DNA of 41,546 bases from Planctomycetota bacterium (GTDB lineage: Bacteria > Planctomycetota > JAJSAM01 > JAKLKS01). Made by a program: the position numbers and the translations under genes. Under the pieces are notes generated by a model. It was given only the letters and a program-made list of their open reading frames with translations, had not been told where the DNA came from and did no database searches. Of the stretch, positions 1,835 through 24,572 are shown in pieces (within the stretch, counting starts at the first letter, position 1; each line of letters begins with the position of its first letter). Location of the stretch: NCBI GenBank assembly GCA_023150535.1, contig JAKLKS010000006.1:1-41546 (forward strand), read 5' to 3'.

Positions 1835-1920
1835 GACCTTCCGACTGACTTGGGCGATGCGCTACTCTCGTAGACCTTGGCGGTCGTGTTGGGCATCACG
1901 GGAGACTTCCGAGGAGGCGA

Positions 1921-4900: not shown

Positions 4901-5110
4901 AGGGGCCCGGAACAGCTCCAGCTCTGGCCCGAGATGGAGAGGGAGGAGTTCAAGCGGAACCAGGATGCGCTTCGCGCCCGGGCGAAGGAGATCCCTGAGG
5001 AGATTGTCAGAGAGACGGCGGCGATCCGGGCGCGCTACACCTCGCCGAAGGCTCGGCTCTTTCCCGTGGCGGTGACCTTCCTCGTGCCGGAGAAGTACTC
5101 GCGTGGCTAG
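1921..5110 (+). CDS. drmD: DISARM DrmD, SNF2-like helicase
   Basis: Walker A DDVGLGKTIEAGL, DEAH box (LVLDEAHNVAP), helicase C motifs (LLATDAASEGIDLQ, NRMEQRNGRIDRHGQ); first gene of a DISARM-ordered operon. TTG at 1921 follows GAGGAGG; ORF track starts at 1877. Confidence 0.88.
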
Positions 5111-8100: not shown

Positions 8101-9305
8101 CGGTCGCCAGTCGTCCGTGGCCGGGCGTCGCAAACCTCGCCATCGCCGAGGTGTGGTTACGACGTGGTCAATGGCGTGGCCCCCATGTCCTGGCAGGGGA
8201 GGAGGTCCCGAGCATTACCCCCTTCCTCACGCGACCAGGGAGGGTCTCCGGGAAGCCATTCAGACTCGAGGCGAATGCTGGCGTGGCGTTCCAGGGTTCC
8301 ATCGTCCTGGGGCTTGGGTTCGTGCTGACGCCCAAGGAAGCCGAGGCTCTGTTGGAGGGCAATCCACGCAATCGTGAAGTCCTGTTCTTGTATCTGAGTG
8401 GAGAAGATCTCAACGCGCGTCCAGACCAATCTGCCAGTAGGTGGGTAATCAACTTCCGAGATTGGCCTCTGGACCGCGAGGCAGCGCCGGATGGGTACCG
8501 TGGACCGGTGGCCAGTGACTTCCCGGAGTGTCTTGATGTCGTACGTGAGAAGGTGAGGCCTGAGCGGGAAACGAACAACCGGAAGGTGTATCGGGTACGC
8601 TGGTGGCAGTACGGAGAGAAGCGCCCAGAACTCTACAAGGCCCTCGCCTCGCTCAAGCGTGTCTTGGTTATCCCGGAAACGACAAAATACTGTGCCTTTT
8701 CGATGTGTGCATCCTCTCAGGTCTTCTCTCATATGACAAAGGTCGTGGCGTCCGACAGTTGGGGGTTGTTCGGAGTCCTGAATGCAGCACCCCATCGCGC
8801 CTGGGCTAGGGCCTACTGTTCCACACTGGAGACCCGCCTGAAGTACATCACCACCGACGCGTTCGAGACCTATCCGCTGCCACGTGACTGCGACGCTCTA
8901 TCCGTCATTGGAGAGCGGTTTTCTGAGGCGCGCAGCAGAGTCATGCGCCGGATGGGCACCGGGCTAACGAAGACATACAACGCGTTCCACAACGAGGCTT
9001 GTCGGGATGGAGACATTGTGGCTCTCCGTGACTGTGCCGTGGAGTTGGACAGGGCGGTTGTCCGTGCATATGGCTGGGACGATCTCCAACTCAGGCACGG
9101 GTTCTTTCCGACGAAGCAGGGGCTCCGCTTCACAGTCGACGGAGGGCTACGTGACGAGTTGTTGGATCGCCTTCTTGCCCTGAACCACGAGCGGCACGCG
9201 GAGGAGGTGGCGAAGGGCCTGCACGTGGCAGGCAAGCCGAAGAAGCGCACTACCATACGGAGGAGTCCCGGGGTCAACCCACCAGGACTCTTCGACCCGA
9301 GGTAG
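5103..9305 (+). CDS. drmMI: DISARM DrmMI, N6-adenine DNA methyltransferase
   Basis: SAM motif CDMAMGSGAFLVQA and catalytic NPPF (IVGNPPFMGG); 1400 aa; GTG start overlaps the drmD stop by 8 bp. Confidence 0.9.
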   Translation: MARGRPRAARGTVQGGPVPVARQHAEWMRLIDISGPFLSLAVLERAFPQGLEAHDAEHSALLRRAYGDWEESQGSGRADPAVHRQWVRFVLLETLALGQGALAEGQRIPQALAVAVPEHGETLRPDFAVVTPPGGADAGKVRLLVQVLPSGQDLEKPLPAKRWNASSATRMMELLQGTEVRLGLVTNGEQWMLVSATRGETTGFATWHSHLWIEEPATLRAFRTLLGAHRFFSAAANETLEALLTESATTQHEVTDQLGAQVRRAVEVLVQALDRIDRDRGRTLLKGVPERELYDAALTVMMRLVFLFAAEERGLLMLGDPLYDQHYAVSTLRDQLREDADQHGEEILERRRAAWTRLLATFRAVHAGVEHDALRLPAYGGSLFDPDRFPFLEGRTRGTSWRDTLADPLPVHDRTVLHLLEALQLLQVKVGRGPSEAQRVSFRALDIEQIGHIYEGLLDHTARRADAPVLGLAGARGQEPEVPLPVLEEHRTRGIESLLEFLTEQTGRSEKALRGAVSYEVPSDDHRFVVACDNDTSLLQRVRPFAGLVREDTQGLPVVIPQGSVYVTQGSDRRATGTHYTPKSLTEPIVQYALEPLVYEGPSEGRPREQWRLKSPDRILSLRVCDMAMGSGAFLVQACRYLADRLVEAWTLADADAGKAIAASGEAGTRKRSGSPADPPSDVEEQLILARRLVTDRCLYGVDVNPMAVEMAKLSLWLVTLQKDRPFTFLDHALRCGDSLLGVSSSEQIEHLHIDPVKGRKQRQAELEYRRVLGPALAAAVSKRRKIESFTVRDIRDAEEKRRLLREAEASLTEVGRVADLVVGAALHAAGTRGVDLDEVLIAIGDELAFALSPSHSQVERDRRWEALRTRARQMLDTGAARGLTTLRPFHWPIEFPEVFLGDSGAARGFDAIVGNPPFMGGQKLTGTFGTAYRDYLVEHVASGKRGSADLCAYFLLRAHSLLQDTGGMAMLATNTIAQGDTREVGLEQLVERGCSIPRAVASRPWPGVANLAIAEVWLRRGQWRGPHVLAGEEVPSITPFLTRPGRVSGKPFRLEANAGVAFQGSIVLGLGFVLTPKEAEALLEGNPRNREVLFLYLSGEDLNARPDQSASRWVINFRDWPLDREAAPDGYRGPVASDFPECLDVVREKVRPERETNNRKVYRVRWWQYGEKRPELYKALASLKRVLVIPETTKYCAFSMCASSQVFSHMTKVVASDSWGLFGVLNAAPHRAWARAYCSTLETRLKYITTDAFETYPLPRDCDALSVIGERFSEARSRVMRRMGTGLTKTYNAFHNEACRDGDIVALRDCAVELDRAVVRAYGWDDLQLRHGFFPTKQGLRFTVDGGLRDELLDRLLALNHERHAEEVAKGLHVAGKPKKRTTIRRSPGVNPPGLFDPR

Positions 9306-9361
9306 ACAGCGCGTAGGATGCAGACTGAGGTTGGGTCAACGAAGGCCGCATCGCGAAGGGA

Positions 9362-12300
9362 GTGCCCGTGTCCGAGTCTGTGTCCATGAAGGAGCGGCCC
9401 AAGCCGGCAGTGCTTCGGGCGCAGCTTATAGAGAAGGTCGTCGGGGACCTGCTCGGACCTGCTGGCGGCGCAGAGGAGGAAATCGCTGAGGGCAGCGTCC
9501 AAGATCGTTACCTCGTCGGTCTCCTAGCGCCGAGACAGAAGCAGGTTCGCCCGGAGCAGCTGGAGGGCCTGTCAGTCGGCGGTGACGGGAGCCGCGAGGA
9601 GGGCACCGTCGAACCGGAGACCCCGTCCGCCGACACCCTGTTCCCCTCATCGATCGGGCTCACCTTCTCATTGGCGGGCGACAGCACCTCCATCCGGGTC
9701 CGAGCCGCGTGGGGGCGCTACGAGAGGGTCGTCAGCGAGACGCAGGTGGACTCGAAGACCGGGAACCCTCTCAGAGTCTGGAAGCGCCGCCCCGTCTCCG
9801 CGACCCTCGACTCCCTCCCGCTTCGGCCCGGGCCGATCCCTCCCTGGTCCCCAAGTCCGGAGCAGCCCGAGGTGCGCGTCCGAGGGCTGGTTCGGTCCGT
9901 CCATGGGGAGTGGATCGTCACCTTGTTCCTCGTGAACGGCCAGCCGGAGCCCGACAAGAACCGCGACGAGGCCTGGCTCTTCCAGCCCGAGTTGATGGTC
10001 GAGGCTCCGGACGGGGCTGCCGTGTTCGTCAGGCGCCCTCGTCGCAGGAGTTCGCCGCAGGCCGACCCGACCGCCCAGGCCGAGGAGGCGTCGATGGCGA
10101 TGCTCCATCGGCGGCACATGGAGTTCGCCGTCGGGCACGGTATCGCGGTTCACGCCGATGTGCACTCTCGCGACCCGTCCAGGGCAACGCGCGTCGCAAC
10201 CCGGGTCGTGCCTAGCTACGAGGTCCCTGCGACCGCATCCCCTTCTCAGGCAGAGAGACCGAGCCTCTCGGGGCTCGTCGTGGACATGAAGGTCCTAGCG
10301 GAAGCGGCGGAGGCTCGAGACCTCATCGAGAAGCTGAAGGCCCTGCCCGTGGCGTACGAGGAGTGGATCCGCGCCGAGGCGGACAAGGTCAAGAGCGGCG
10401 CGGCGGGGCTCACGGAGTACCAGGAGGCCGCGGAGAGCGCGCTCGCGCGATGCGAGGAGACCCTGGGCCGCATTCGGGAGGGGCTGGCTCTCCTTGAAGC
10501 CGATCCGAAGGCGGCGGACGCGTTCCGGTTCGCCAATCACGCCATGTGGCAGCAGAGGACCCGTTCGATCTACGCGGAGAGGGCGCGGCGTGGCCAGAAA
10601 CCCGTCATGGCCCAGATCGACGTCCCAGAGAACCGGTCCTGGTATCCCTTCCAGCTGGCCTTCCTGCTTCTCAACCTCCCCGGAGTCACCGACCTCGGCC
10701 ATCCCGACAGGCTGGAGGAGGCGGCGGCCGGGGCGGACCTGCTCTGGTTCCCGACGGGGGGCGGCAAGACCGAGGCCTACCTGGGCTTGGCCGCGTACGT
10801 CATGGGGATGCGCCGGCTACAGGGCGAGGAAGGCGGTCGGCGGGGCGATGCCGGCGTCGCCGTCCTCATGCGATACACCCTTCGCCTGCTGACCATCCAG
10901 CAGTTCCAGCGCGCCGCCGCTCTCGTGTGTGCATGCGAGATGTACCGCCAGGAGGCAATGAAGTCGGGCGACCTGCGATGGGGCACCACGCCGTTCCGGC
11001 TCGGACTCTGGGTCGGAGGAAGGGTAACGCCCAACCGGACGGCGGACTCCGCGGAGGCCATCCTCCAAGGAAGAGGCGGAGGCTACCGACGTGGCACCGC
11101 TGCGGCAGGCAGAGGAGATCCGGCCCAGCTGACCTCGTGCCCGTGGTGCGGCAGCGGGATTGCCAGGGGCAAGGACGTCGTCGTGGACACCAAAGGCCAC
11201 GGACGGACGTTCACGTACTGCGGAGACCACACGGGCCTCTGCCCCTTCAGCGCGCGCATGTCGCCGAAGGAGGGGGTCCCCGTCGTCGTCGTGGACGAGG
11301 AGATCTACCACCTGCTTCCCGGGCTCGTCATCGCGACGGTGGACAAGTTCGCCCAGATGCCCTGGAACGGGGCGACCCGCACGCTCTTCGGACACGTGCG
11401 GCGTCGGTGCCCCAGGCACGGGTTCCTGGCGCCTGACGAGGATCACCCCGGATCCCATCCGCAGCAGAAGGACCTCCACCCCGTGGCGGTGGAGGACTGC
11501 TCCCCCCTCCGCCCCCCGGATCTCATCATCCAGGACGAGCTGCACCTCATCAGTGGCCCCCTGGGGACGCTCGTGGGGCTCTATGAGACTGCCGTGGATC
11601 GCCTCTGTTCCTGGGAGGTGAATGGCAGACAGGTTCGCCCGAAGGTCATCGCCTCGACGGCGACCATCCGGCGGGCCCGCGAGCAGGTCCATGGCGTGTT
11701 CGTCAGGGAGGTTCGGGTGTTCCCTCCCCACGGGACGGACATTGGGGACAACTTCTTCGCGGTCCAGCGTGAGGACCGGACGCAGCATCCGGGGCGCCTC
11801 TACCTGGGGCTCTGTGCTCCTGGGCGCCGCCTGAAGCTCGCCCAGATCCGGGCCTACGTGGCGTTCCTCTCCGCGGCCCAGCAGCTGTACAACGAGCATG
11901 GGGTGGCTGTAGACCCGTGGATGACCCTCGTCGGCTACTTCAACTCCCTCCGCGAACTAGGGGGTATGAGGCGGCTGGTGGACGACGACGTGCGGTCGCG
12001 GCTCAAGTTCGCCGAGCAACGGGGCCTGGCGTACAGGAAGTTGAGCGAGCCTAGGGAGTTGACCTCCCGGATGGGCTCCTCGGAGATCCCCAAGACGCTG
12101 GACCTCCTCGAGGTTCCGTTCGATCCGGTCGCGATCGAGCGGCGGAAGAAGCTGAAGCAGTGGACGGACCCGCTCCCGGTGGACGTCCTCCTGGCCACGA
12201 ACATGATCTCGGTGGGAGTGGATGTGAAGCGGCTGGGCCTGATGGTGGTGTCCGGACAGCCCAAGAACACCGCCGAGTACATCCAGGCGACGAGCCGGGT

Positions 12301-12880
12301 CGGGCGCCAGCATCCCGGCATCGTCTGCACCATCCTCAACTGGGCTCGGCCCCGGGACCTCTCCCACTACGAGAGGTTCGAGCACTACCACGCGACCTTC
12401 TATCAGCACGTCGAGGCGCTCTCGGTGACGCCGTTCGCGCTCCGGGCCTTGGACCGCGGGCTCACCGCTGTCCTCGTGTCCATGCTGAGGCTTGCGGAGG
12501 AGGAGCTCGCGATGAACGTCGGTGCGGGCCGCATCGAGAAGTGTCGTCCGGTCGCAGACAGGGTCATCGAAGAGGTTGCTGCGCGGGCCGAGCAGGTCTC
12601 CGGCGAGAAGCGTGTGGGCGATCTCGTTCGCCAGATGGCGAAGCTCCGGCTGGACGAGTGGCTTGCTGCGGCCCGGAACAGGGCCGGAGGCCGGAACCTC
12701 GGGTACTTGGCGGATCGGAGCGGGGTCACGGCTGCCTTGCTTCGGAAACCCGAAGAGGGGGACTGGAGGATCTTCACCTGCCTCAACTCCCTGAGGGATG
12801 TTGAGCCGACCGTCGGCTTGGTCCTGGTCGATAAGCCGGGCGAGTCCGGCGGGCCGGCACCGCCGGGGGTGACGGCATGA
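9362..12880 (+). CDS. drmA: DISARM DrmA, helicase
   Basis: Walker A LWFPTGGGKTEAYLGLAAYV; IIQDELHLISGPLG; C-terminal NMISVGVDVKRLGLMVVSGQPKNTAEYIQATSRVGRQ. Confidence 0.9.
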   Translation: MPVSESVSMKERPKPAVLRAQLIEKVVGDLLGPAGGAEEEIAEGSVQDRYLVGLLAPRQKQVRPEQLEGLSVGGDGSREEGTVEPETPSADTLFPSSIGLTFSLAGDSTSIRVRAAWGRYERVVSETQVDSKTGNPLRVWKRRPVSATLDSLPLRPGPIPPWSPSPEQPEVRVRGLVRSVHGEWIVTLFLVNGQPEPDKNRDEAWLFQPELMVEAPDGAAVFVRRPRRRSSPQADPTAQAEEASMAMLHRRHMEFAVGHGIAVHADVHSRDPSRATRVATRVVPSYEVPATASPSQAERPSLSGLVVDMKVLAEAAEARDLIEKLKALPVAYEEWIRAEADKVKSGAAGLTEYQEAAESALARCEETLGRIREGLALLEADPKAADAFRFANHAMWQQRTRSIYAERARRGQKPVMAQIDVPENRSWYPFQLAFLLLNLPGVTDLGHPDRLEEAAAGADLLWFPTGGGKTEAYLGLAAYVMGMRRLQGEEGGRRGDAGVAVLMRYTLRLLTIQQFQRAAALVCACEMYRQEAMKSGDLRWGTTPFRLGLWVGGRVTPNRTADSAEAILQGRGGGYRRGTAAAGRGDPAQLTSCPWCGSGIARGKDVVVDTKGHGRTFTYCGDHTGLCPFSARMSPKEGVPVVVVDEEIYHLLPGLVIATVDKFAQMPWNGATRTLFGHVRRRCPRHGFLAPDEDHPGSHPQQKDLHPVAVEDCSPLRPPDLIIQDELHLISGPLGTLVGLYETAVDRLCSWEVNGRQVRPKVIASTATIRRAREQVHGVFVREVRVFPPHGTDIGDNFFAVQREDRTQHPGRLYLGLCAPGRRLKLAQIRAYVAFLSAAQQLYNEHGVAVDPWMTLVGYFNSLRELGGMRRLVDDDVRSRLKFAEQRGLAYRKLSEPRELTSRMGSSEIPKTLDLLEVPFDPVAIERRKKLKQWTDPLPVDVLLATNMISVGVDVKRLGLMVVSGQPKNTAEYIQATSRVGRQHPGIVCTILNWARPRDLSHYERFEHYHATFYQHVEALSVTPFALRALDRGLTAVLVSMLRLAEEELAMNVGAGRIEKCRPVADRVIEEVAARAEQVSGEKRVGDLVRQMAKLRLDEWLAAARNRAGGRNLGYLADRSGVTAALLRKPEEGDWRIFTCLNSLRDVEPTVGLVLVDKPGESGGPAPPGVTA

Positions 12881-14757
12881 GCCCCAAGGACGCTCCGTGC
12901 CGCGTCGGAGAACTGCGTCCGAGTCAGCTTCTCTATGCGTTCGGAGTCGGTGCGATGGTCGACCTTCCGCAGCTCTCTGCCATGGTCCTTGGTCTCGATG
13001 ATTGGGATGCGGCCCGGGCCAGGGAGATCAACGAGGAGCGGCTCCTTGTAGCGGTTCGCCAGGAGTTGGGCCTCCAGGTTGACAAGTTGCGCTCGCCGCC
13101 TGTCCCGGATGATGCCGCCGCGGCCCGGCAGGACCCGCTTGGGGACGAGGCTCGCGTGGGCGTGCCCGTGACCAGTTTCCCCGAGTGGTTGCGTTGCCCC
13201 TTCTGTCAGCTCATAGCGCCAATCGGTTCTGGGCTCTTCACGCTCAAGAAGGACCCATACCGGGCGGAGAGGACGGGCTACGTCCATACGAGTTGTCCCA
13301 AGGGGAACCGAAGTCCGCACGTGCTCCCCGCGCGCTTCCTGGTGGCTTGTGCCAATGGGCACCTGGACGACTTCCCGTGGCTCTACTACGTCCACCGGGG
13401 CCCGAGCGATTGCCACGGGCCTCTGCGACTCCAGGAGGGCTACTCGGCGAGCGAGATCACCGATGTGTGGGTCCGTTGCGACCCCTGCGACGCTTCGAGA
13501 CCCATGGTGGGCGCGTTCGAGCTTGACGGGGACGCTTTGCCGCCCTGCCGGGGGCGGCGTCCACACCTCCGGGACTTCGCGGCGGGGCCCTGTGTTGAGC
13601 GCAGCCGGGCGATCCTCCTCGGGGCGTCGAACAGCTGGTTCCCCATGTCCTTCTCAGTTCTCTCGATCCCAAACGCGTCGGACCGTCTCGGTCAACTGGT
13701 GGAGGCGAGGTGGGACAAGCTCTCCCAGCTTCAGTCGCGGCAGAACATCGAGCTTCTTCGCCAGTTCGGCCAACTCGACGAATTCGTGCAGTTCAGCGAC
13801 GAACATCTGTGGGGCGCCATCGAGGCGAAGCGGGCATCGAGTGTCGGAGCGGGCAAGGAGGGCTCCGCGCGGGACCTCAAGGGGCCTGAGTGGGAACGGT
13901 TCTCGCTCCCGGACCTGACCAGGAATGGTCCCGACTTCCACCTCGATCAGGTGGCCTCGCCTGCGACCTACAAGGAGGTCCTGAACAAGGTCGTGCTGGT
14001 CCGCCGCCTGCGCGAGGTCATCGCTCTCGTCGGCTTCACGCGCATCGACTCTCCGGGGGATCTGGCGGACGGCGCCCAGTTGCCGGTTTCTCGACGTGTG
14101 CCCCTCTCGCGAAGAGATCCAGTGTGGGTCCCGGCCAACGAGGTTCGAGGTGAGGGCATCTTCCTTCAGGTCCGGGAGGATGCGATTGCGTCCTGGGCCG
14201 CTCTGCCGGAAGTGAAGAAGCGAGGGGCAGACCTGCTGCAGGCGCACGTGGCCTGGCGTCAACGCCGACGGGTGGATCCTCCGGGCGCAGGGTTCCCGGG
14301 CATGCGGTATGTCCTCCTGCATTCCCTTTCGCACGTGCTCATGCGCCAGGTCGCGCTGGAGTGCGGCTACACGATGGCCAGCATTCGCGAGCGGATCTAC
14401 GCGCGCGAGGAGGGCGAGCCGGGCGGCCCGATGGCCGGCATCCTGCTATACACGGCGGCGCCGGACAGCGAGGGCACACTCGGAGGGCTCGTGAGCCTGG
14501 GAGAGCCCACCTCCCTCGGGAGGCACCTGGATGCGGCGCTGGAGGCCGCCAGGCTCTGCTCCTCCGACCCGCTCTGTTCCGAGCATCATCCCTTCAGCAG
14601 CGGCCTGACTCTCCATGGGGCTGCCTGTCACGCCTGCCTGTTCGCGCCCGAGACCTCCTGCGAGAGAGGCAACAAGTACCTGGACCGACTGTCCCTCGTC
14701 CCGACGTTCGCCGGTGGAGGGGGTGCCTTCTTCGGTCGGGCAGGACTCTCCCGGTGA
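12877..14757 (+). CDS. drmB: DISARM DrmB, DUF1998-containing protein
   Basis: LLHSLSHVLMRQVALECGYTMASIRERIY...GILLYTAAPDSEGTLGGLV plus Cys-rich HGAACHACLFAPETSCERGNKYLDR; ATGA overlap with drmA. Confidence 0.9.
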   Translation: MSPKDAPCRVGELRPSQLLYAFGVGAMVDLPQLSAMVLGLDDWDAARAREINEERLLVAVRQELGLQVDKLRSPPVPDDAAAARQDPLGDEARVGVPVTSFPEWLRCPFCQLIAPIGSGLFTLKKDPYRAERTGYVHTSCPKGNRSPHVLPARFLVACANGHLDDFPWLYYVHRGPSDCHGPLRLQEGYSASEITDVWVRCDPCDASRPMVGAFELDGDALPPCRGRRPHLRDFAAGPCVERSRAILLGASNSWFPMSFSVLSIPNASDRLGQLVEARWDKLSQLQSRQNIELLRQFGQLDEFVQFSDEHLWGAIEAKRASSVGAGKEGSARDLKGPEWERFSLPDLTRNGPDFHLDQVASPATYKEVLNKVVLVRRLREVIALVGFTRIDSPGDLADGAQLPVSRRVPLSRRDPVWVPANEVRGEGIFLQVREDAIASWAALPEVKKRGADLLQAHVAWRQRRRVDPPGAGFPGMRYVLLHSLSHVLMRQVALECGYTMASIRERIYAREEGEPGGPMAGILLYTAAPDSEGTLGGLVSLGEPTSLGRHLDAALEAARLCSSDPLCSEHHPFSSGLTLHGAACHACLFAPETSCERGNKYLDRLSLVPTFAGGGGAFFGRAGLSR

Positions 14758-15587
14758 AGAAGGAGATCCAGAGTCTCGCCGAGGCGGTCGGTGAGTTGGT
14801 ACGTGCCATCCCTGCCGATGCGGTAGAGAGGCTTGCGGCCGCGTTGGAGGCGATCCCGGCGGACGCGCCCCCTCGGCAACGACAGGCCATTGGCAACAGG
14901 GCGGCCCAGCCTCACGTCCGCTCGGCGGTGGCACGGCTTCTCAATGCCTGGACAGAGTTCTCACGAAGTGTCCCGCCAAGCGCATTGGCGCTAGCGCTAC
15001 GGGCGGCGGGAGGAGCTGACGATCAGGCCCGCAGGGAGCAGGTCCTGGAGCTAGTGTGGTCCGGGCCGCTCAGGGCTGAGGCGACGAACCGACGGACGGA
15101 GCAGGTGCTCCTGGACATGATCGAGAACGCGGCTCGGTCCCTGTTGCTCGTGACCTACAGCGCATACAAAGTCCCCCGCCTAGTGAAGGCGCTGCGCGAA
15201 GCCGTGCGCCGGAGGGTGTCCGTGACCCTTGTCCTTGAAAGTCCCGAGCGCACCCATGCCGTAGAGGCGTTCCGATTGCTCACGGGAGGAAGGGGCAAGT
15301 CCCACGTCGACGGGGAGCCACCCATGGTCTACGTCTGGCCGCTCGAGATGAGACCAGGAGACCCGAAGGGCAACCCCGCGGCGCTCCATGCCAAGTGCGC
15401 CGTCGCGGACGACGCTGTGCTGCTTGTCTCGAGCGCCAACCTCACGGAGTCGGCGTTCGAGATCAACATGGAGTTGGGGGTATTGGTGCGTGGCGGAGAC
15501 ATGCCGCGCCGGGTCGCCGAACACTGGCGCGGCCTTGCTTCGGATGGGCAACTCGTCCCCTTCAGGGCGGGGGCCAAGGACGCCTGA
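14754..15587 (+). CDS. drmC: DISARM DrmC, phospholipase D-like protein
   Basis: HKD motif ALHAKCAVADDAVLLVSSANLTESAFEINMELGV; GTGA overlap with drmB (GTG at 14754, drmB TGA 14755-14757). Confidence 0.87.
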   Translation: MKKEIQSLAEAVGELVRAIPADAVERLAAALEAIPADAPPRQRQAIGNRAAQPHVRSAVARLLNAWTEFSRSVPPSALALALRAAGGADDQARREQVLELVWSGPLRAEATNRRTEQVLLDMIENAARSLLLVTYSAYKVPRLVKALREAVRRRVSVTLVLESPERTHAVEAFRLLTGGRGKSHVDGEPPMVYVWPLEMRPGDPKGNPAALHAKCAVADDAVLLVSSANLTESAFEINMELGVLVRGGDMPRRVAEHWRGLASDGQLVPFRAGAKDA

Positions 15588-16367: not shown

Positions 16368-17831
16368 CTACTTGCGGCCAGTCTCGCCCCACCAGGCGGG
16401 GTCCCTGATCTCATCCCGTGCTTTCGCCTCGAGCGCCGCGAGGTTGACCTGAAGCACACCGGCCAACCAGGCTCCCTCAGCGCGAGCCCTCTCCATCGAC
16501 TCGTCGGAGAACCACCTCAGCGCCTCGACGACCGGCCTCTTCAGGCGCTCCCAGGCCTCGGCGGCCCATTCCTTCCCCTCCAGGGCGTACCGGGTCCTCC
16601 GAGCCTTGAGGACCCCCGAGTCCACGGTGGCCGGGAGCCTGTACGCGACGCAGAGGCCCATGACGACCTTGAGGTCTGGGGCGGGGAAGTTCTCGATGGA
16701 CTCCCGGAGGAGTTCGAGGACGCGGGCTGCCCGGCGCTTGGCGTAGCGCGCCTTGCTGGCCTCGAGCCGCTCCTTCGGGGACATCTCGGCGGCCGTCTTC
16801 CGGGGCTTCCGACCGTTCCCGGGCCCGTGGGAGGCTCTGGGAGCCTGGATCCAGACCCGGGTGACCCGGCCGTCCACGGTGACCTTGGCGGCCGGCAGGG
16901 CCCCCTTGGCGCTCTTCTTCGAGTCCTCCACCGTCCAGGAGTCGAGGACCTTCTGGTCCTTCAGGCACGGCAGGTGCTTCGCATCGACGTCCCCGGCGAT
17001 GAGCACGAGGTCCGGCTGCTCACTCCGGAGGCTGGCGAGGGACTGGGCGGCGTGCGCATCGGCCTTGGCGGTCCAGCAGAGGGCATCGCGACAGGTGGCC
17101 TTCCGGACGTCCTTCACTTCGCCATCGCTGAAGAGTCCCGGGCAGGCCATCGACTGCTTCGGGCACGACGCGCATGCCCCCGCCTTGGGCAACAGGGCGG
17201 CGTCCTCGAGGTCCCACGGTGCCTTCCCGAGCAGGCGGAAGTACTTGGAGACGATGCCCTGGAGCTGGCGGCCGTCTCGGACCCAAGAGACCCGCTCGAC
17301 CTCGGCATCCTGCACTTCGGGGGAGAGACGAGACCAGTCTTCGAGCCAGGAGACGGGCCAGCCTGCCCGAGCGAGCACTTCGCGCGACTTCTTGGTCAGG
17401 GTTTGGAGGTTCGCGCGCTGGGCGACCCACTTCGGGGGTTTCCCGAGCAGGTCGGCCACGGACCGGAGGGTGTGGACCGCCTTCTTGAGGAGCGCGTCCA
17501 CGGCCTTCGACTCCATGAACGGGTCGGGGTCCGTGCGGACGCGGTTGTCGGAGAGCATGAGGGCAAGGGCCTCGTCGTCGTCGAGGTCCTCCACGAGGCA
17601 GGGCACTTCCCGGCCGAGGAGCCTCCCGACGAAGGCCCGGCGGTGGCCGATGACGACCTGGTACTGCTTCGATCCGTTCTCTCCGACGGGACGGACGACG
17701 CACGGCTGCTGCTGACCGTGGGCCTCGATGCTGGCCCGGAGCTCGGAGACCTCGGACTCGGTCGGACGGGGGCGGGGGTTCTGCGGGTGCGGGGTGAGGA
17801 CCGACGGGGGAAGGGCGACGATGGGGGGCAT
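16368..17831 (-). CDS. ParB/RepB/Spo0J-family (ParB nuclease-like) protein with cysteine cluster
   Basis: N-terminal HPQNPRPRPTESEVSELRASIEAHGQQQPCVVRPV...YQVVIGHRRAFVGRLLG; central CASCPKQSMACPGLFSDGEVKDVRKATCRDALCW. Confidence 0.75.
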   Translation of the reverse strand: MPPIVALPPSVLTPHPQNPRPRPTESEVSELRASIEAHGQQQPCVVRPVGENGSKQYQVVIGHRRAFVGRLLGREVPCLVEDLDDDEALALMLSDNRVRTDPDPFMESKAVDALLKKAVHTLRSVADLLGKPPKWVAQRANLQTLTKKSREVLARAGWPVSWLEDWSRLSPEVQDAEVERVSWVRDGRQLQGIVSKYFRLLGKAPWDLEDAALLPKAGACASCPKQSMACPGLFSDGEVKDVRKATCRDALCWTAKADAHAAQSLASLRSEQPDLVLIAGDVDAKHLPCLKDQKVLDSWTVEDSKKSAKGALPAAKVTVDGRVTRVWIQAPRASHGPGNGRKPRKTAAEMSPKERLEASKARYAKRRAARVLELLRESIENFPAPDLKVVMGLCVAYRLPATVDSGVLKARRTRYALEGKEWAAEAWERLKRPVVEALRWFSDESMERARAEGAWLAGVLQVNLAALEAKARDEIRDPAWWGETGRK

Positions 17832-18364: not shown

Positions 18365-18385
18365 TACAACTGCAGGAGGTAGGTG

Positions 18386-18634
18386 ATGAGCATGCACACG
18401 CTGATCCAGTGGACGGACTCCACGGTCAATCCCGTCGGGGGGTGTGGAGGCTGCGAGCTGTGGGTGCCGGGCGCGCCGATCGAGGAACAGACGTGCTACG
18501 CCGGGCACTCGACGCAGTGGCGAAAGGGCAAGAACAGGGCCTTCGCGATGGACTTCAACGTGCCGGAACTGTTCCCCGGCCGGATGGCGGAGGCGGCCGC
18601 TTGGTCCGACCTCCTCGGAAAGGAGCGAGCATGA
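18386..18634 (+). CDS. DUF5131 (phage Gp37/Gp68-like) protein, N-terminal part
   Basis: MSMHTLIQWTDSTVNPVGGCGGCELW...EEQTCYAGHSTQWRKGK resembles the I-E-W-T-D...NP..GC...CYA N-terminus of this family; AGGAGG RBS. Track starts at GTG 18383. Confidence 0.65.
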   Translation: MSMHTLIQWTDSTVNPVGGCGGCELWVPGAPIEEQTCYAGHSTQWRKGKNRAFAMDFNVPELFPGRMAEAAAWSDLLGKERA

Positions 18635-19377
18635 GCTTCTCGAAGCCGTGGCTCAAGGGAGCAAGGCGCCTCATCTTTATCTCCGACATGGGAGACGCGC
18701 TGAGCGAGGGCACGTACCGGGACGCGGGCAACTACGCCACGACCCACGACAAGCGGCAGTCCGTGCGGGGGCGGCTGCACGACGGCGGCATCCCGTTCGC
18801 CTACCTGAAGACCGAGGTCATCGACAACGTCACGTCCGAGAAGGGCCGTCGGCACGTCTGGCTCTGGCTGACGAAGAGGCCTCACAGGATGGCGCAGTTC
18901 GCCGCTTGGCTCCGCGAGGAGCACGGCCTCGACTGGCCGGACAACCTCTGGGTGGGGACGTCGATCACCTCGGCGGCGACGCTCGGGCGGGTCCGCGAGC
19001 TGGCGAAGGTCGGGGCGCCGGTGATGTTCTTGAGCGTGGAGCCGCTCTGGGAGATGGTCTCGTTCAAGAAGAACCTCTCGGAGTACCCCGCGATCCGCTG
19101 GCTCCTGCTGGGCGGGGAGTCCGACCAGGGCGAGAACCGCGCCCACGAGTTCAGGCTCGAGTGGGCTCGGGACATCCTGCGGGAGTGCCGGGAGGCCGAC
19201 GTCGCCTTCTTCCTGAAGCAGCTCGGCTCCAACGTGACGGAGAACGGCAGGACGCTGGACTTCGGCAAGGGGCACGCCGGCGACTGGGAGAGGTGGCCTG
19301 TGGACCTTCGGGTCCGCGAGCTGCCGCCGGAGGCATACGTCGCGCCGGCGCCCGTGGTGGGGGAGGCCTCCCGGTAG
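18631..19377 (+). CDS. DUF5131 (phage Gp37/Gp68-like) protein, C-terminal part
   Basis: RRLIFISDMGDALSE...HVWLWLTKRPHRMAQFAAWL...NLWVGTSITS...PVMFLSVEPLWEMV...WLLLGGESDQGENRAHEFRLEWARDI...VAFFLKQLG; ATGA overlap with the preceding ORF. Confidence 0.75.
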   Translation: MSFSKPWLKGARRLIFISDMGDALSEGTYRDAGNYATTHDKRQSVRGRLHDGGIPFAYLKTEVIDNVTSEKGRRHVWLWLTKRPHRMAQFAAWLREEHGLDWPDNLWVGTSITSAATLGRVRELAKVGAPVMFLSVEPLWEMVSFKKNLSEYPAIRWLLLGGESDQGENRAHEFRLEWARDILRECREADVAFFLKQLGSNVTENGRTLDFGKGHAGDWERWPVDLRVRELPPEAYVAPAPVVGEASR

Positions 19378-19438: not shown

Positions 19439-20896
19439 CTAGATCACCCGGACAGGCGGCCAGTGCACAGGGGGATGGACGAGGGCGTCGATGGCCCCCT
19501 GGTCCGCCCACCCGACGATGTGCCGGCAGGGGCAGTCGGGGTTCGGTGGATCCCTCCGGTCGGCGACGTCCACGAACTTGCCGACGAGGTTCATCTGCAA
19601 GGTCTCGAAAGGGGCGTCGAACCTCCCGGTCAGCCAGCCAATGGCGTAGCCGGACGCCATGGCGGCCGCCGTCGTCGTCAGGTACCCGACGGTGTTCAGC
19701 TGGGGCATGTCCCTCCAGTAGGGATTGGGGTCCTCCCCTCGTTCCACGGCCTCGCGCGCCGCCTTGCGCCGGCTCTCCCTCTCCTCGGGCGACATCAGGG
19801 TCATCTTCTTGCACAGGGCGCATGTGTCCCACGGCAAGAGCCTCGTGATCTGAAGGACTTGGCCCGTCACCTCGCCGGCTTCCCCCTCCAAGCCCACGGC
19901 GCAGTCGATGGAGGGGATCAAGTACCGGAAGGCTAGGTCGCTCAGGGCGAGCCGGCTGTGGTGCTGGTCGGTGCACCCGAGGACGATGTCAGCGCCTACC
20001 ACCGCATCGACGATCTCCTTCTGGGGGAGGCGCCCGACGAGCGCCACCACCTTGCAGTCGGGGTCGATGGTGGCCACGTGCCTCTTCGCGACCTCCACCT
20101 TGAGGCGGTGCAGGGCGGCGTCCTCCGGGGTGCTGCCGTGGACGCGCTCGAGGTTCGACTCGTCCACATGATCCGGATCCACGATGATGAGCCGCCCGAC
20201 GCCCGCCCGCGCGAAGACCTCGATCGCCGCCGAGCCCGTGCCGCCGGCGCCGATGATCGCCGCGGTAGATCGGCGGAGGCGGGACTCAGCCTCGTCCCCG
20301 AAGGCAGACCGCAGGCGGGCCACCCGATTGCGAGCGGGCGGGTCGGGGACCGGGCGACGCCCTCCGACCCAGGCCCGCAGCGGCGTCCGCTTGACAAGGA
20401 CACGCTGGACGAGGCCCCAGCGCCCCTTCCAGAAAACCCTCCCGGAGATCGCGAGCTCCCCGCCCATCTCTGAGAGGACCAGGCTCACGTAGGGCCGCCC
20501 CGGTGCGAACCCCGAGAGGTAGTCGGCGTAGTACGTGTCCATGTCGTCATCGATGGGGCTCGGGTACGGAGGGCACCCCTTAGGGTGGGAGTGCGCGACG
20601 CCGACGCCGAGGCGGTGCTTCTCGGCGGCCAGCGCGGTCCTGAGGGTGTACGGTTCCTGGATCGCGACGTGCGCGACCCGGCCGTCTACGTCGCCGGGCT
20701 CCGGCGGGTCCATCCCGGCCAGGGTGACCACCAGCGTTTCGCCGGTGTCGCGCCAGCCCCACCGGAGGAACGTTGCCCACTCCATGGCCGGGTACCGAGA
20801 GAAGAGCAGGGACCGGAGCGCCGCGGTGTCCCGCTCGGTCATGCGGAGGACGACCGGAAGGCCGTCGTACCGGACTAGTTGAGCTTGTGGAGCCAT
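19439..20896 (-). CDS. JAB/JAMM deubiquitinase-like domain fused to ThiF/MoeB/E1-like adenylyltransferase
   Basis: N-terminal JAMM AMEWATFLRWG...VGVAHSHPKGCPPYPSPIDDDMD; E1 Rossmann AAIIGAGGTGSAAIEVFARAGVGRLIIVDPDHVDESNLERV; cysteine pairs DTCALC and DCPC. ATG at 20896 preferred over 20947. Confidence 0.85.
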   Translation of the reverse strand: MAPQAQLVRYDGLPVVLRMTERDTAALRSLLFSRYPAMEWATFLRWGWRDTGETLVVTLAGMDPPEPGDVDGRVAHVAIQEPYTLRTALAAEKHRLGVGVAHSHPKGCPPYPSPIDDDMDTYYADYLSGFAPGRPYVSLVLSEMGGELAISGRVFWKGRWGLVQRVLVKRTPLRAWVGGRRPVPDPPARNRVARLRSAFGDEAESRLRRSTAAIIGAGGTGSAAIEVFARAGVGRLIIVDPDHVDESNLERVHGSTPEDAALHRLKVEVAKRHVATIDPDCKVVALVGRLPQKEIVDAVVGADIVLGCTDQHHSRLALSDLAFRYLIPSIDCAVGLEGEAGEVTGQVLQITRLLPWDTCALCKKMTLMSPEERESRRKAAREAVERGEDPNPYWRDMPQLNTVGYLTTTAAAMASGYAIGWLTGRFDAPFETLQMNLVGKFVDVADRRDPPNPDCPCRHIVGWADQGAIDALVHPPVHWPPVRVI

Positions 20897-21288
20897 GAGA
20901 TCAGGTGGTCCGCGTAGGTATGGAAGCCGAAGCGCGTCTGGTCCCACGGGGGTCCGCCGCCGTTGCCGTGGGGGTGGTAGCTGGCCAGTTGCCAGTTCCG
21001 TCCATCGAGGGTGAGGGTGCCCTGGCTGTTGGTTCCGCCCTTGACCCGGGACAGGAACGGCGAGTCCAGCGGCAGCGCCGCCAGGTCGATCGGGGAGCCC
21101 GGGTAGCCCGGAGGGACCGGCACGACTACGTCCGCGGCGTCGGGGAGGCCGAGAGGCTGGCCGCCGGCCGGGACGCCCCGGTAGAGCACCAGCGGCCGGT
21201 CCCCGTCGAAGAGCTGCGCGTTCAGGCCCCCCTCGAGCAGCCGGGCGAGTTCCCGCTCGATCCGCTCCCTACTGGGGTCGGGCAGCAT
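20875..21288 (-). CDS. E2/UBC-superfamily-like protein (Prok-E2_E-like)
   Basis: Located between Ubl and JAB-E1 genes, overlapping both; VVVPVPPGYPGSPIDLAALPL...WQLASYHPHGNGGGPPWDQTRFGFHTYADHLISWLHKLN. Start at 21288 or 21303. Confidence 0.7.
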   Translation of the reverse strand: MLPDPSRERIERELARLLEGGLNAQLFDGDRPLVLYRGVPAGGQPLGLPDAADVVVPVPPGYPGSPIDLAALPLDSPFLSRVKGGTNSQGTLTLDGRNWQLASYHPHGNGGGPPWDQTRFGFHTYADHLISWLHKLN

Positions 21289-21595
21289 GGCCGCCCTCCA
21301 CAACCTTCCGGGTCACGACGAAGTGGTCGCCGCTCTTGATCGGGACGGTCTGGTTCACCCCGATCTCGTCCTTGTCGGGGCCGCTGTCCCTGCGGATGAC
21401 AGCGATGTCCGCGGGCGTGCCGACGAGGGCGGCGATCTCGGCGCCCGTCATCTGCGGCTTGACCCCGTCGCTCTCCTCGAACTTCCGCCTGTTCACGAAG
21501 ATGTGCAGGCTCGGGCCTCCGCCCTGCCCGCCACCGCCATGCCCGCCACCGCCATGCCCGCCGTCACCACCCTTCCCTTCGGCCGCTGCCGTCAT
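21269..21595 (-). CDS. Ubiquitin-like (multiubiquitin-family beta-grasp) modifier with Gly/His-rich N-terminus
   Basis: SLHIFVNRRKFEESDGVKPQMTGAEIAALVG...IGVNQTVPIKSGDHFVVTRKVVEGGHAARPQ; N-terminal GGDGGHGGGGHGGGGQGGG; operonic with E2- and E1-like genes. Confidence 0.75.
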   Translation of the reverse strand: MTAAAEGKGGDGGHGGGGHGGGGQGGGPSLHIFVNRRKFEESDGVKPQMTGAEIAALVGTPADIAVIRRDSGPDKDEIGVNQTVPIKSGDHFVVTRKVVEGGHAARPQ

Positions 21596-21660: not shown

Positions 21661-21767
21661 AGTGTACCCGGTACGCCCAGGTTTGTCAAGGTAGAGAACA
21701 TAAGAGTCAGTATTCCTGACTGTCACGGTCCTTGACTTCGGGGTGCGCGGTGCGGTACAGTCTCGAC
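21661..21767. promoter_or_regulatory. Divergent promoters with central operator palindrome
   Basis: Minus: TTGACA (21684-21689) -17 bp- TACACT (21661-21666). Plus: TTGACT (21732-21737) -18 bp- TACAGT (21756-21761). Between them AGTCAG-tattc-CTGACT (21705-21721). Confidence 0.65.
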
Positions 21768-22217
21768 GTGGCGACACCTCCAGCACGGCTCTACGAGTTG
21801 CTCGGGAAGCGGGTCAAGGAGCGGCGCCGAAGCCTGGAGTTGAAGCAGGACCAGCTCGCCGAGCAGGTCGGTCTCAAGAGGACCTCCATCACCAATCTGG
21901 AGACGGGGCGCCAGAGGATCCCCTTGGACCAGCTGTACCGGATCGCCAGGGTCCTGGACGTCGAACTCCGGGACCTTCTTCCGACTCGGCAGGAGATCGA
22001 GACCCCAGGAAAGGTCCCTGTCGAGGTTGGTGGGAAGCACTTCGAGGCACCGCCCAATGCGGCCAGGCTGATCCAGAGGATCCTGGCAGGTCAGACAGGG
22101 GGACACGATGGCAAACGACAGGTTGCTGAAGGTGGCGGAGCAGGCCGCGACGGCGGTGCTGCAGCGCCACAAGGTCAAGGAACCCCCGGTGGACGTGGAG
22201 GCGCTCGCCGCCGCTGA
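21768..22217 (+). CDS. XRE-family HTH transcriptional regulator
   Basis: LGKRVKERRRSLELKQDQLAEQVGLKRTSITNLETGRQRIPLDQLYRIARVLDVELRDLLP; GTG at 21768. Confidence 0.8.
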   Translation: MATPPARLYELLGKRVKERRRSLELKQDQLAEQVGLKRTSITNLETGRQRIPLDQLYRIARVLDVELRDLLPTRQEIETPGKVPVEVGGKHFEAPPNAARLIQRILAGQTGGHDGKRQVAEGGGAGRDGGAAAPQGQGTPGGRGGARRR

Positions 22218-22676: not shown

Positions 22677-23258
22677 CTACGCGAACGACCTCAGGGTGAT
22701 CGAGATCCTCCGGCCCACGTCGCCTGCGCGGTGCGGGACCTCGTGGGTCCACGCCAGGTTCACCTCGTAGGGCATGACGATGACGGTGCCGTCCGCGACC
22801 TCGAGGTCCAGGCGCCCGGCGCCTCCCCGCTGACGCATCCGGAACGTCCTCCGCTCGCCGAGCGAGATCGTGACGATGGGAGCGCCCGGGACCAGCCCGG
22901 TGCGGCTGTCCCTGTGCTGTCCGATGTGGTGCCGCTTCGCACCGTCGTACCAGTTCAGGAGGACGCCGTTGAGGCGGCGGTCGACCGCCTTGCGCGCGGA
23001 CTCCAGGAACTGGCGCAAGCCGGCGGGGATGGGGAGCGCGACGTTGGTGCTCCCGGTGTAGCGATAGTCCCTGCCGTACGCCTGCTGCCAGCGCGGCGTC
23101 GGGATCCTCCGGCCGAGCATCCGGACCACGTGGGGCCGGGGCGGATGGAGGTTCCAGAGCTCCTCGAACCCCTCTGCGTTCGGCAGCAGCCGAGGAGGAA
23201 GGGCGCCCACGAGGACGTGGTGCCCGTCTCCTAGTTCGTGGACAGTCAATCGGAACAT
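22677..23258 (-). CDS. AlkB-like 2OG-Fe(II) dioxygenase
   Basis: LNWYDGAKRHHIGQHRDSRTGLVPGAPIVTISLGERRTFRMR (HxD) ... NLAWTHEVPHR...RRISITLRSF (distal His and Arg). Confidence 0.8.
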   Translation of the reverse strand: MFRLTVHELGDGHHVLVGALPPRLLPNAEGFEELWNLHPPRPHVVRMLGRRIPTPRWQQAYGRDYRYTGSTNVALPIPAGLRQFLESARKAVDRRLNGVLLNWYDGAKRHHIGQHRDSRTGLVPGAPIVTISLGERRTFRMRQRGGAGRLDLEVADGTVIVMPYEVNLAWTHEVPHRAGDVGRRISITLRSFA

Positions 23259-23462
23259 CCGGGCTCCCCGCCATGCACGTCGGTCACGGTACGACGGCAC
23301 CTGATGGTGGGGCTTAGGGGGCCGATCTGGCTAGCACCGACCGGCCCCCAGTTGGCGGGCCCGGGATAGAGCCTTGCCCTTTACGCCGACCCTTCTTGGA
23401 GAATAGGGATGAGGTGGAAGTGGCCGGCGACCCATGCTCCGTCAGGCGCATGCTACCACCGG

Positions 23463-24572
23463 TCACGGCGCGATGCGGAGGAGCGCCTCCAGCCGGTCAC
23501 GGGCCAGGTCCGTGAAGTTAGCGGGGACGTGGGCCGCGTACCGGGAGACCATGACCATGGAGCCGTGGCCGAGGAGCCGGGCGAGGTCCCCGAGGGGGAC
23601 TCCGGCGCGAGCGGCAGTCGTCGCGAAGACGTGCCTCATGTCGTGCCACCGGAGCGTCGGATGCCCTGCTCGGGCGCGGCCCGCCACCCACTCCTTCCGG
23701 AAGCCGGGCACGAAGTCCGGCTCGCCTCGCCGGGACGGGCGGTTGAGCTCGCGGAACACCGGGTCGGGGACGGTGGCGGGATGCGCTCCGCGCAGCCGCC
23801 GTTGGTCGAGGAGACCCTCCAGGCCCCTTGAGGTGAACGGCACGGTCCGGGGTGTGCGGTTCTTCGAGACGCGGACGGTGAGCGCCTTCCGCTCGAGGTC
23901 GATGTCGCGCCAGTCCAATCGCAGGAGCTCTCCCAGGCGGAGCCCGGTGTCGAGGGTCAGCAGGACCGCGTTCCGCAGCGGGGGCTCGAAGACCGAGACG
24001 AGGTGGGCCTGGGCGGGCAGGTCGAGGAAGGGCGGCTCCCTCCGTGCCTCCTTACCGCGGGGGATGCCGCGGCAGGGGTTCTCGCGGACGTGGTTGCGGA
24101 GGAGGGCCTCGCGGAAGAGCGCGGACAGGATGGAGAGGTAGCGGTTCCTGGTCCCGGGAGAGAGGTCCCGGTCCTGCATCCGCTTCGACACGAAGCGCTC
24201 GATGTCCTCCCGCTGGATGTCGGAGAGCAGTCGTCCCCGGAAGACGGGGACGGCTACCGCGTTCAGGAACTCCAGCTCCCGCAGCACGGTGATGGAGCTC
24301 TTCTTCCCCCGGCAGGCGGCGGGGAGGTCCTTGAGGAAGTCCTCGAAGCGGATGGCGTCGAGCGGCCGGATGCCCATGGCCTCGGCGATGGCGAGGTCGG
24401 TCTCCTTCTTGGCCAGGAAGCGCTGCGCGAGGCCCTTGGTGGGGCCGATGGCCTTCGTCCGCGTCCGGCCCCGCTCCTGCCAGCGGGCGGTCCAGATCCT
24501 CCCCCGCAGGAAGATCGTGCCGAATGCCCGGCGCTGCCGACGCTGCGGCTTCGGAGGGATCTCGTCGGCCAT
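23463..24572 (-). CDS. Tyrosine-type site-specific integrase
   Basis: LDTGLRLGELLRLDWRDIDLERKALTV...HPTLRWHDMRHVFATTAARAGVPLGDLARLLGHGSMVMVSRYAAH (R...HxxR...H...Y). Confidence 0.9.
   Translation of the reverse strand: MADEIPPKPQRRQRRAFGTIFLRGRIWTARWQERGRTRTKAIGPTKGLAQRFLAKKETDLAIAEAMGIRPLDAIRFEDFLKDLPAACRGKKSSITVLRELEFLNAVAVPVFRGRLLSDIQREDIERFVSKRMQDRDLSPGTRNRYLSILSALFREALLRNHVRENPCRGIPRGKEARREPPFLDLPAQAHLVSVFEPPLRNAVLLTLDTGLRLGELLRLDWRDIDLERKALTVRVSKNRTPRTVPFTSRGLEGLLDQRRLRGAHPATVPDPVFRELNRPSRRGEPDFVPGFRKEWVAGRARAGHPTLRWHDMRHVFATTAARAGVPLGDLARLLGHGSMVMVSRYAAHVPANFTDLARDRLEALLRIAP

What the first reader, a model, noticed from the sequence alone, without database searches (positions are those of the whole stretch)
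19439..21595. Compact bacterial ubiquitin-like conjugation operon (Ubl, E2-like, JAB-E1 fusion)
Three overlapping genes encode a beta-grasp modifier, an E2-superfamily protein and a single polypeptide fusing a JAMM protease to an E1. Bacterial Ubl/E1/E2/JAB operons are an established theme, several being anti-phage. This minimal three-gene form inside a defence island is a strong candidate for an under-characterised system.
Basis: partly seen in the sequence, partly recalled or inferred. Interest (0 to 1): 0.85.

Follow-up and report, generated by a model that had tools for sequence, protein, structure and literature searches.

The report
Cysteine-less bacterial ubiquitin-like operon (Bub variant)
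This is a real three-gene bacterial ubiquitin-like operon, related to the recently described Bub pathways but belonging to a separate branch that lacks the usual fourth gene (BubE/DUF6527), has no catalytic cysteine in its E1- or E2-like proteins, and is probably switched on by DNA damage inside an anti-phage defence island.

Summary
In detail: three overlapping minus-strand genes encode a solo ubiquitin-like protein (21595-21269), an E2-fold protein (21288-20875) and a JAMM-E1 fusion (20896-19439). Profiles built only from relatives each pick out exactly these ORFs among 590 in the window. The closest solved structures are Citrobacter BubA, BubB and BubCD. So this is Bub-like (Iyer 2006 type 6e), not a Bil- or CBASS-type thioester cascade. 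I found ten members of this branch. All lack DUF6527 at the locus; eight of nine host genomes lack it altogether. All ten Ubls carry Gly-Gly followed by a tail or by the E2 domain, so JAMM cleavage is probably needed. Neighbours include DISARM, IetAS, GmrSD and pAgo. Best explanation: a DNA-damage-induced, cysteine-independent Ubl conjugation system with a likely defence role. Chemistry, targets and anti-phage activity are inferred. Verdict: new variant of a known kind.

The parts
21269..21595 (-). Ubl (BubA-like), 108 aa: Gly/His-rich N-terminal stretch (residues 7-28), beta-grasp domain (about residues 29-97), invariant Gly101-Gly102, 6-residue tail HAARPQ
   Evidence: Multi_ubiq 21.3 bits; leave-window-out HMM 6e-27; AF2 beta-grasp with best PDB matches bacterial multi-ubiquitin proteins and BubA 9ea8_B; V-x-G-G invariant in 10 relatives
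21290..21295 (-). codons of Gly101-Gly102, the predicted JAMM cleavage point
   Evidence: Gly-Gly invariant; what follows is a variable tail in solo Ubls, or the E2 domain directly in fused versions. Cleavage is inferred.
20875..21288 (-). E2-like protein (BubB-like), 137 aa, no cysteine; motif SYHPH..G..P.W...(R)xG.HTY
   Evidence: Prok-E2_E 22.3 bits; profile vs canonical BubB group hhalign 98%, E 2e-13; AF2 pLDDT 90, best PDB match BubB 9eae_C, then the Vps23 UEV domain
19439..20896 (-). JAMM-E1 fusion (BubCD-like), 485 aa: N-terminal JAMM/Prok-JAB domain, C-terminal ThiF/E1 domain with a CxxC...CxC zinc site
   Evidence: ThiF 129.7 bits, Prok-JAB 24.1 bits; best PDB match Citrobacter BubCD, profile E 2e-27
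20549..20593 (-). JAMM motif H102-x-H104-x8-S113-x2-D116
   Evidence: invariant in 10 relatives, together with upstream E39
21768..22217 (+). CapH-like HTH repressor (likely start GTG 21768; the TTG start at 21732 lies on the -35 box)
   Evidence: PADLOC capH 51.4 bits, HTH_3 47.8 bits
22108..22650 (+). CapP-like M78/ImmA metallopeptidase with HEIGH motif
   Evidence: PADLOC capP 110.2 bits, Peptidase_M78 84.5 bits; HEIGH
21661..21689 (-). promoter-like site TTGACA-17-TACACT for the Ubl operon
   Evidence: 3 sites found in the region, 0.0 expected from shuffles
21732..21761 (+). promoter-like site TTGACT-18-TACAGT for capH
21696..21730 (.). inverted repeat between the divergent promoters (core AGTCAG-GAATA-CTGACT), candidate CapH operator
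   Evidence: operator role inferred

Best explanation
A Bub-type ubiquitin-like conjugation system of a separate, BubE-less branch. A CapH-like repressor keeps it off; DNA damage or infection activates the CapP-like peptidase, which cleaves CapH and releases the divergent promoter (inferred from CapH/CapP). The JAMM domain of the fusion trims the Ubl precursor after Gly-Gly, or cuts it from the E2 domain in fused relatives. The E1 domain adenylates the Gly-Gly end. The E2-fold protein has no cysteine and works as a BubB/UEV-like partner rather than a thioester carrier, so the Ubl passes to targets without E1 or E2 cysteine thioesters (hydroxyl ester or directly from the adenylate). With no BubE/DUF6527 protease, the JAMM domain is the only visible candidate for deconjugation. 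Likely biological role: induced defence against phage or mobile DNA. Shown here: genes, homology, folds, catalytic-residue pattern, absence of DUF6527, regulator homology, defence neighbours. Inferred: processing, chemistry, targets, induction, defence.
For: Homology to Citrobacter BubA/BubB/BubCD by sequence and fold. JAMM and adenylation residues invariant in ten relatives (G216, G219, T220, G221, D240, S247, N248, R251, K266, D310, R315). Only Cys308 (in the GCTD motif) and the four zinc cysteines are conserved in the E1, and no E2 cysteine is conserved. The branch of ten is well supported (98/99) and separate from canonical Bub (first tree, 100/99). DUF6527 absent at all ten loci; absent from eight of nine host genomes and from the tenth member's plasmid, but beside the JAB-E1 gene in the canonical genomes. 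CapH and/or CapP matches at all nine E2-bearing loci scanned. Known defence genes beside five of those nine: DISARM (window), IetAS (L045, L072), GmrSD/HEC-05 and a type I specificity subunit (L060), pAgo (L073). PMC13373217: 219 of 544 Bub operons carry CapW or CapH+CapP.
Against: No activity is shown for any member. The closest member without an E2-like gene, L021 (54% identical JAB-E1), sits in what looks like a biosynthetic cluster with SufE, MoaD and HesA-like genes, so Ubl activation in this branch need not mean protein conjugation. Bub operons have not been shown to protect against phage (PMC13373217). Sampling and defence-neighbour counts have no formal background control. The window genome is an 88% complete assembly in 529 contigs, so absence of DUF6527 there alone is weak.
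Confidence: 0.6

Rival explanations
1. Sulfur carrier: JAMM trims the Ubl, the E1 adenylates it, and the Gly-Gly end becomes a thiocarboxylate that donates sulfur to a metabolite, as in ThiS/MoaD/CysO-type pathways.
For: The E1 domain resembles ThiF/MoeB in NCBIfam (97 and 86 bits) and lacks E1-type catalytic cysteines. Relative L021 encodes only Ubl + JAB-E1 and lies beside SufE, MoaD and HesA/MoeB-like genes.
Against: Nine of ten members keep the E2-like protein, which sulfur carriers do not need, and carry a CapH-type defence regulator. No sulfur or biosynthesis genes lie next to the window operon. The closest solved relatives are Bub proteins, not sulfur-transfer enzymes.
Confidence: 0.15
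2. Classical Bil/CBASS-like conjugation through E1 and E2 cysteine thioesters.
For: Ubl, E2-fold, E1 and JAMM are all present.
Against: The window E2-like protein has no cysteine and none is conserved in its family; the E1 has no conserved cysteine beyond the GCTD motif and zinc ligands. The best fold matches are BubB and a UEV domain, not an active E2.
Confidence: 0.05
3. Non-covalent system: the Ubl oligomerises or acts as a ligand, with the E1 and E2-like proteins serving assembly or sensing rather than target modification.
For: Bacterial multi-ubiquitin proteins in the PDB form filaments (9d59, 9d5b titles) and are the closest fold matches of the Ubl.
Against: The window Ubl is solo, and its Gly-Gly plus the intact JAMM and adenylation residues are conserved, which points to enzymatic use of the C-terminus.
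Confidence: 0.1
4. DNA-damage response or mobile-element regulation rather than anti-phage defence.
For: CapH/CapP-type regulators respond to DNA damage (PMC13373217), the locus lies beside an integrase (23463-24572), and Bub operons have no demonstrated anti-phage effect.
Against: Repeated placement next to known defence systems.
Confidence: 0.3

Closest known systems
Bub (bacterial ubiquitination-like) operons; Citrobacter BubA/BubB/BubCD (PDB 9ea4, 9ea5, 9ea8, 9eae, 9eav)
   Same: Ubl + cysteine-less E2-like (Prok-E2_E) + JAMM-E1 fusion; CapH/CapP-type regulators also known for Bub (PMC13373217)
   Different: No BubE/DUF6527; separate clade; Ubl has Gly-Gly plus tail where most canonical Ubls seen here end at or near a single Gly; E2 motif SYHPH..G..P.W instead of WQRWSRH...WRPG
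Iyer et al. 2006 operon type 6e (PMC1779556)
   Same: Ubl(s), cysteine-less RWD/E2-like domain fused to the Ubl or standing between the Ubl and JAB-E1 genes, JAB fused to E1; a solo Ubl is recorded for one member
   Different: No metal-binding 'Y' protein recognised next to the window operon; CapH/CapP regulation was not described there
Bil (BilABCD)
   Same: Ubl, E2, E1 and JAMM components; the Ubl precursor is processed by the JAMM (PMC11354881)
   Different: Bil has a catalytic E2 cysteine (CEHH motif) and a separate BilC protease
CBASS type II Cap2/Cap3 and related E1-E2 systems
   Same: E1 domain similarity (PADLOC E1-E2 up to 60 bits); CapH/CapP regulators
   Different: No nucleotidyltransferase, no E2-E1 fusion, separate E2-like gene without cysteine
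ThiS/MoaD sulfur-carrier pathways
   Same: ThiF-like E1 and a Gly-Gly beta-grasp protein
   Different: E2-like protein, JAMM-E1 fusion and defence regulator are extra

Membership tests
Bub (canonical four-component operon) | BubA-type multi-ubiquitin-family Ubl | tested here: met
   canonical-only HMM 2e-6; fold match to BubA 9ea8_B and multi-ubiquitin proteins
Bub (canonical four-component operon) | BubB: cysteine-less Prok-E2_E protein | tested here: met
   hhalign 98%, E 2e-13; fold match to BubB, prob 1.00, TM 0.61
Bub (canonical four-component operon) | BubCD: JAMM-E1 fusion | tested here: met
   best PDB match BubCD, E 3.6e-19 single sequence and 2e-27 profile
Bub (canonical four-component operon) | BubE/DUF6527 gene (PF20137) | tested here: not met
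   absent from the window, the window genome and seven of the eight other host genomes of the branch; G1386 has one on another contig. Hence 'Bub-like variant', not a canonical Bub operon.
Bub (canonical four-component operon) | conjugation without E1/E2 cysteine thioesters | not testable with these tools
   the absence of conserved cysteines is consistent with it; the reaction itself needs biochemistry
Iyer 2006 type 6e | inactive E2/RWD-like domain plus JAB-E1 fusion plus Ubl | tested here: met
   definition read in PMC1779556
Iyer 2006 type 6e | metal-binding protein Y (C-x3-C-x35-38-H-x2-C) | tested here: inconclusive
   no fourth co-directional gene follows JAB-E1 in the window; no motif search for Y was run
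Bil (BilABCD) | E2 with catalytic cysteine | tested here: not met
   window E2-like protein contains no cysteine
Bil (BilABCD) | separate JAMM protease | tested here: not met
   JAMM is fused to the E1
CapH/CapP regulator | XRE-type HTH repressor next to an M78 metallopeptidase with HExxH, divergent from a defence operon | tested here: met
   PADLOC capH 51 bits, capP 110 bits, HEIGH, divergent promoters
CapH/CapP regulator | DNA-damage-triggered cleavage of the repressor | not testable with these tools
   needs a reporter assay

The most novel reading that the evidence does not exclude
A distinct Bub subtype that has dispensed with BubE: the JAMM domain alone both matures the Ubl and removes it from targets, the Ubl moves through a cysteine-free E1/E2-like pair, and some members (L045, L072) couple the modification to a downstream effector pair, IetA (AAA ATPase) and IetS (subtilase), encoded directly after JAB-E1.
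Probability: 0.25. Interest if true: 0.65.

Novelty: new variant of a known kind. Interest (0 to 1): 0.45.

Why it matters
If the reading is right, this branch shows how little a bacterial ubiquitin-like system needs: a solo Ubl, a UEV-like partner with no cysteine, and one JAMM-E1 polypeptide. It offers a compact natural test of whether cysteine-free Ubl transfer and JAMM-only deconjugation are possible, and its CapH/CapP-type control makes a DNA-damage-induced conjugation experiment practical. The E2-less relative in a sulfur/biosynthesis setting gives a direct comparison between carrier and conjugation uses within one enzyme branch.

Tried and rejected
Classical thioester cascade: rejected on missing cysteines. 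Chance ORFs: rejected by profiles made without the window. A hidden BubE elsewhere in the genome: not found by PF20137, with working positive controls. Phage origin: two viral-contig scans found no relative; the phage collection gave only two weak E1-domain matches. Plasmid search with the E2-like protein: no match. Single-sequence PDB searches with the E2-like and Ubl proteins were uninformative (the Ubl hits are glycine-linker artefacts), and a four-row profile of this branch's E2 reached BubB only at E 0.56; the wider profile, hhalign and the fold search were informative. An E1 nucleophile was sought among invariant residues: T402, Y405, T407 and T408 in the crossover region are invariant in all ten, but I did not assign one. 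In an early 23-sequence alignment the E2 position near the classical active site looked like an invariant Trp; L074 has Phe there, so it is not strictly invariant. The key Bub papers (Ye et al. 2026, doi 10.1038/s41594-025-01696-1; Gong et al. 2025, doi 10.1016/j.str.2025.03.011) are not held. My recollection that Bub uses oxyester intermediates and that BubE is a serine protease is from memory and unverified here.

Full report
Observation. Three overlapping minus-strand ORFs lie exactly where the finding places them. The likely starts are 21595 for the Ubl (108 aa), 21288 for the E2-like protein (137 aa) and 20896 for the JAB-E1 fusion (485 aa), ending at 19439. The next gene beyond 19439 is convergent (DUF5131, plus strand, ending 19377), so the operon has three genes. 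Pfam scores are just under the curated cut-offs for Multi_ubiq, Prok-E2_E and Prok-JAB, and strong for ThiF. Because three of the four are sub-threshold, I made an independent test. HMMs built from relatives with the window left out, and HMMs built only from canonical Bub operons, each hit exactly one ORF among 590 in the window, the expected one every time.

Relatives. The JAB-E1 protein was searched in whole genomes, plasmids, phages and viral contigs. Closest are L001/L060 (a deltaproteobacterial groundwater MAG, 62%), L070 (60%) and L021 (Terrarubrum flagellatum plasmid, 54%), followed by six loci at 37-38% (L044, L045, L071-L074). The host is probably a member of the Planctomycetota. This is inferred: G156, whose 45168-base contig has the same length as plasmid pPla86_1 of Planctomycetes bacterium Pla86, is reported as 'same phylum'. 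No viral contig gave a relative.

A separate branch. A maximum-likelihood tree of 29 JAB-E1 and ThiF-type proteins puts the window and nine relatives in one clade (98/99), apart from all canonical Bub sequences sampled (a first tree of 25 gave 100/99 for the five then known). In the second tree the three ThiF-type sequences group beside this clade (99/98), whereas in the first they fall outside all JAB-E1 proteins, so the deeper branching order is not settled. Within the clade the window groups with L060, L070 and L021. The window, L060 and L070 have a solo Ubl and a separate E2-like gene. Six have three tandem Ubl domains fused to the E2-like domain. L021 has a Ubl and JAB-E1 but no E2-like gene.

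Fourth gene. Canonical Bub operons sampled here carry DUF6527 (PF20137) next to JAB-E1. None of the ten loci of this branch does. The family was sought in the whole genomes: absent from G000, G259, G244, G393, G1307, G1355, G1389 and G1396 and from the L021 plasmid; G1386 has one on a different contig. It was found in all eight canonical genomes or plasmids searched as positive controls. The window genome is 88% complete, so its own absence is weak, but four genomes of the branch are at least 99% complete.

Chemistry. JAMM residues E39, H102, H104, S113 and D116 and the adenylation residues are invariant across the ten. The only conserved cysteines in the E1 are C308 (in the GCTD motif) and four in a CxxC...CxC site that looks like a zinc site; the cysteine of the MoeB/ThiF crossover region is not present, and an invariant TVGY(L/I)TT stands there. 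The E2-like protein of the window has no cysteine, and none is conserved in the family. Its AlphaFold model (pLDDT 90, pTM 0.86) matches Citrobacter BubB best (E 4e-4, probability 1.00, TM 0.61), then the yeast Vps23 UEV domain (probability 0.96), an E2 relative without activity. The Ubl model (well predicted only in residues about 30-97) matches bacterial multi-ubiquitin proteins and BubA.

Ubl maturation. V-x-G-G is invariant in all ten Ubls. In solo Ubls it is followed by a tail (HAARPQ, HES, DRGDLR, ANDARERILS); in fused ones it is followed directly by the E2-like domain. Most canonical Ubls seen here end at or close to a glycine with no such tail. Processing by JAMM is therefore likely required in this branch. 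This is inference from sequence; no cleavage was shown.

Regulation. On the plus strand a CapH-like HTH protein and a CapP-like M78 peptidase with HEIGH are encoded divergently. Promoter-like sites face both ways, three found against 0.0 expected in shuffles, with an inverted repeat between them. All nine E2-bearing loci of the branch have a CapH and/or CapP match; for L071 and L074 the match scanned was CapP. According to PMC13373217, 219 of 544 Bub operons carry CapW or CapH+CapP, and these respond to DNA damage.

Context. The window carries a complete-looking class 1 DISARM (DrmD, DrmMI, DrmA, DrmB, DrmC at 1877-15587). L045 and L072 have IetA and IetS directly downstream of JAB-E1 in the same orientation; L060 has GmrSD/HEC-05 and a type I specificity subunit; L073 has a pAgo. 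I ran no background control for how often such neighbours occur, so this is supportive only. L021 is the exception: it lies among SufE, MoaD, HesA/MoeB-like, radical SAM and aminotransferase genes, which keeps a sulfur-carrier reading alive.

Mechanism and what is known. I favour a damage-induced, cysteine-independent Ubl conjugation system in which JAMM matures the Ubl and may also remove it, E1 adenylates it, and the E2-like protein acts as a non-catalytic partner. Architecturally it is Iyer et al. 2006 type 6e and works like Bub, but it is not filed as a canonical Bub operon because the DUF6527 feature was tested and not met. Two papers that define Bub biochemistry were not available; I recall from memory, unverified, that Bub conjugation was reported to proceed through oxyester intermediates. 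Whether BubE-less members were already catalogued is therefore open.

Limits. Nothing here shows adenylation, conjugation, targets, induction or protection. The structure tool folds single chains, so no complex was modelled. Homology searches were capped samples of large collections, so the size and range of this branch are lower bounds.

Noticed in passing
L070:1633-3156 (-); L060:4979-6504 (+, split into two frames near 5626); plasmid loci L076, L077: A conserved ~500 aa protein with papain/C39-like motifs (QGVSACATAALW, DEGHAVCAMGV; my reading by eye) and no Pfam or NCBIfam match lies next to Bub or Bub-like operons in L060, L070, Mesorhizobium AR07 and P. aeruginosa p4782_002. In the four plasmid records a small ORF of about 55 aa precedes it. 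Candidate accessory protease, effector or deconjugase; absent from the window and its genome.
   Followed up: partly
L021 (Terrarubrum flagellatum plasmid NZ_CP091852.1): Closest E2-less relative: Ubl + JAB-E1 only, in a cluster with SufE, MoaD, HesA/MoeB-like, radical SAM, DegT aminotransferase and acyl-CoA dehydrogenase genes. Possible sulfur-carrier use of the same enzyme branch.
   Followed up: partly
L045:10070-13682 (+) and L072:4778-8219 (-): IetA and IetS (AAA ATPase + subtilase defence pair) directly downstream of JAB-E1, same orientation, in two different genera.
   Followed up: partly
window 1877-15587 (+): Class 1 DISARM: DrmD, DrmMI, DrmA, DrmB, DrmC, consecutive on one strand.
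   Followed up: partly
window 9-1256 (+): ORF with partial similarity to ApeA (PADLOC, 50 bits) just before DISARM.
   Followed up: no
window 18383-19377 (+): DUF5131 protein appears split: an 83 aa ORF (18383-18634), which reads by eye like its N-terminus, overlaps the longer frame; either coupled genes or a frameshift.
   Followed up: no
window 22108-22217: The last ~37 codons of the capH ORF overlap the start of capP in another frame and lie beyond the part that matches the capH profile; may be a genuine long overlap or an assembly indel.
   Followed up: no
window 16368-17831 (-), 22677-23300 (-), 23463-24572 (-): ParB-like protein, AlkB-like 2OG-Fe(II) oxygenase and a tyrosine integrase close to the operon, suggesting an integrated mobile element.
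   Followed up: no
window Ubl residues 7-28 (minus strand, about 21512-21577): Gly/His-rich low-complexity N-terminal stretch (GKGGDGGHGGGGHGGGGQGGG) absent from the relatives examined.
   Followed up: no
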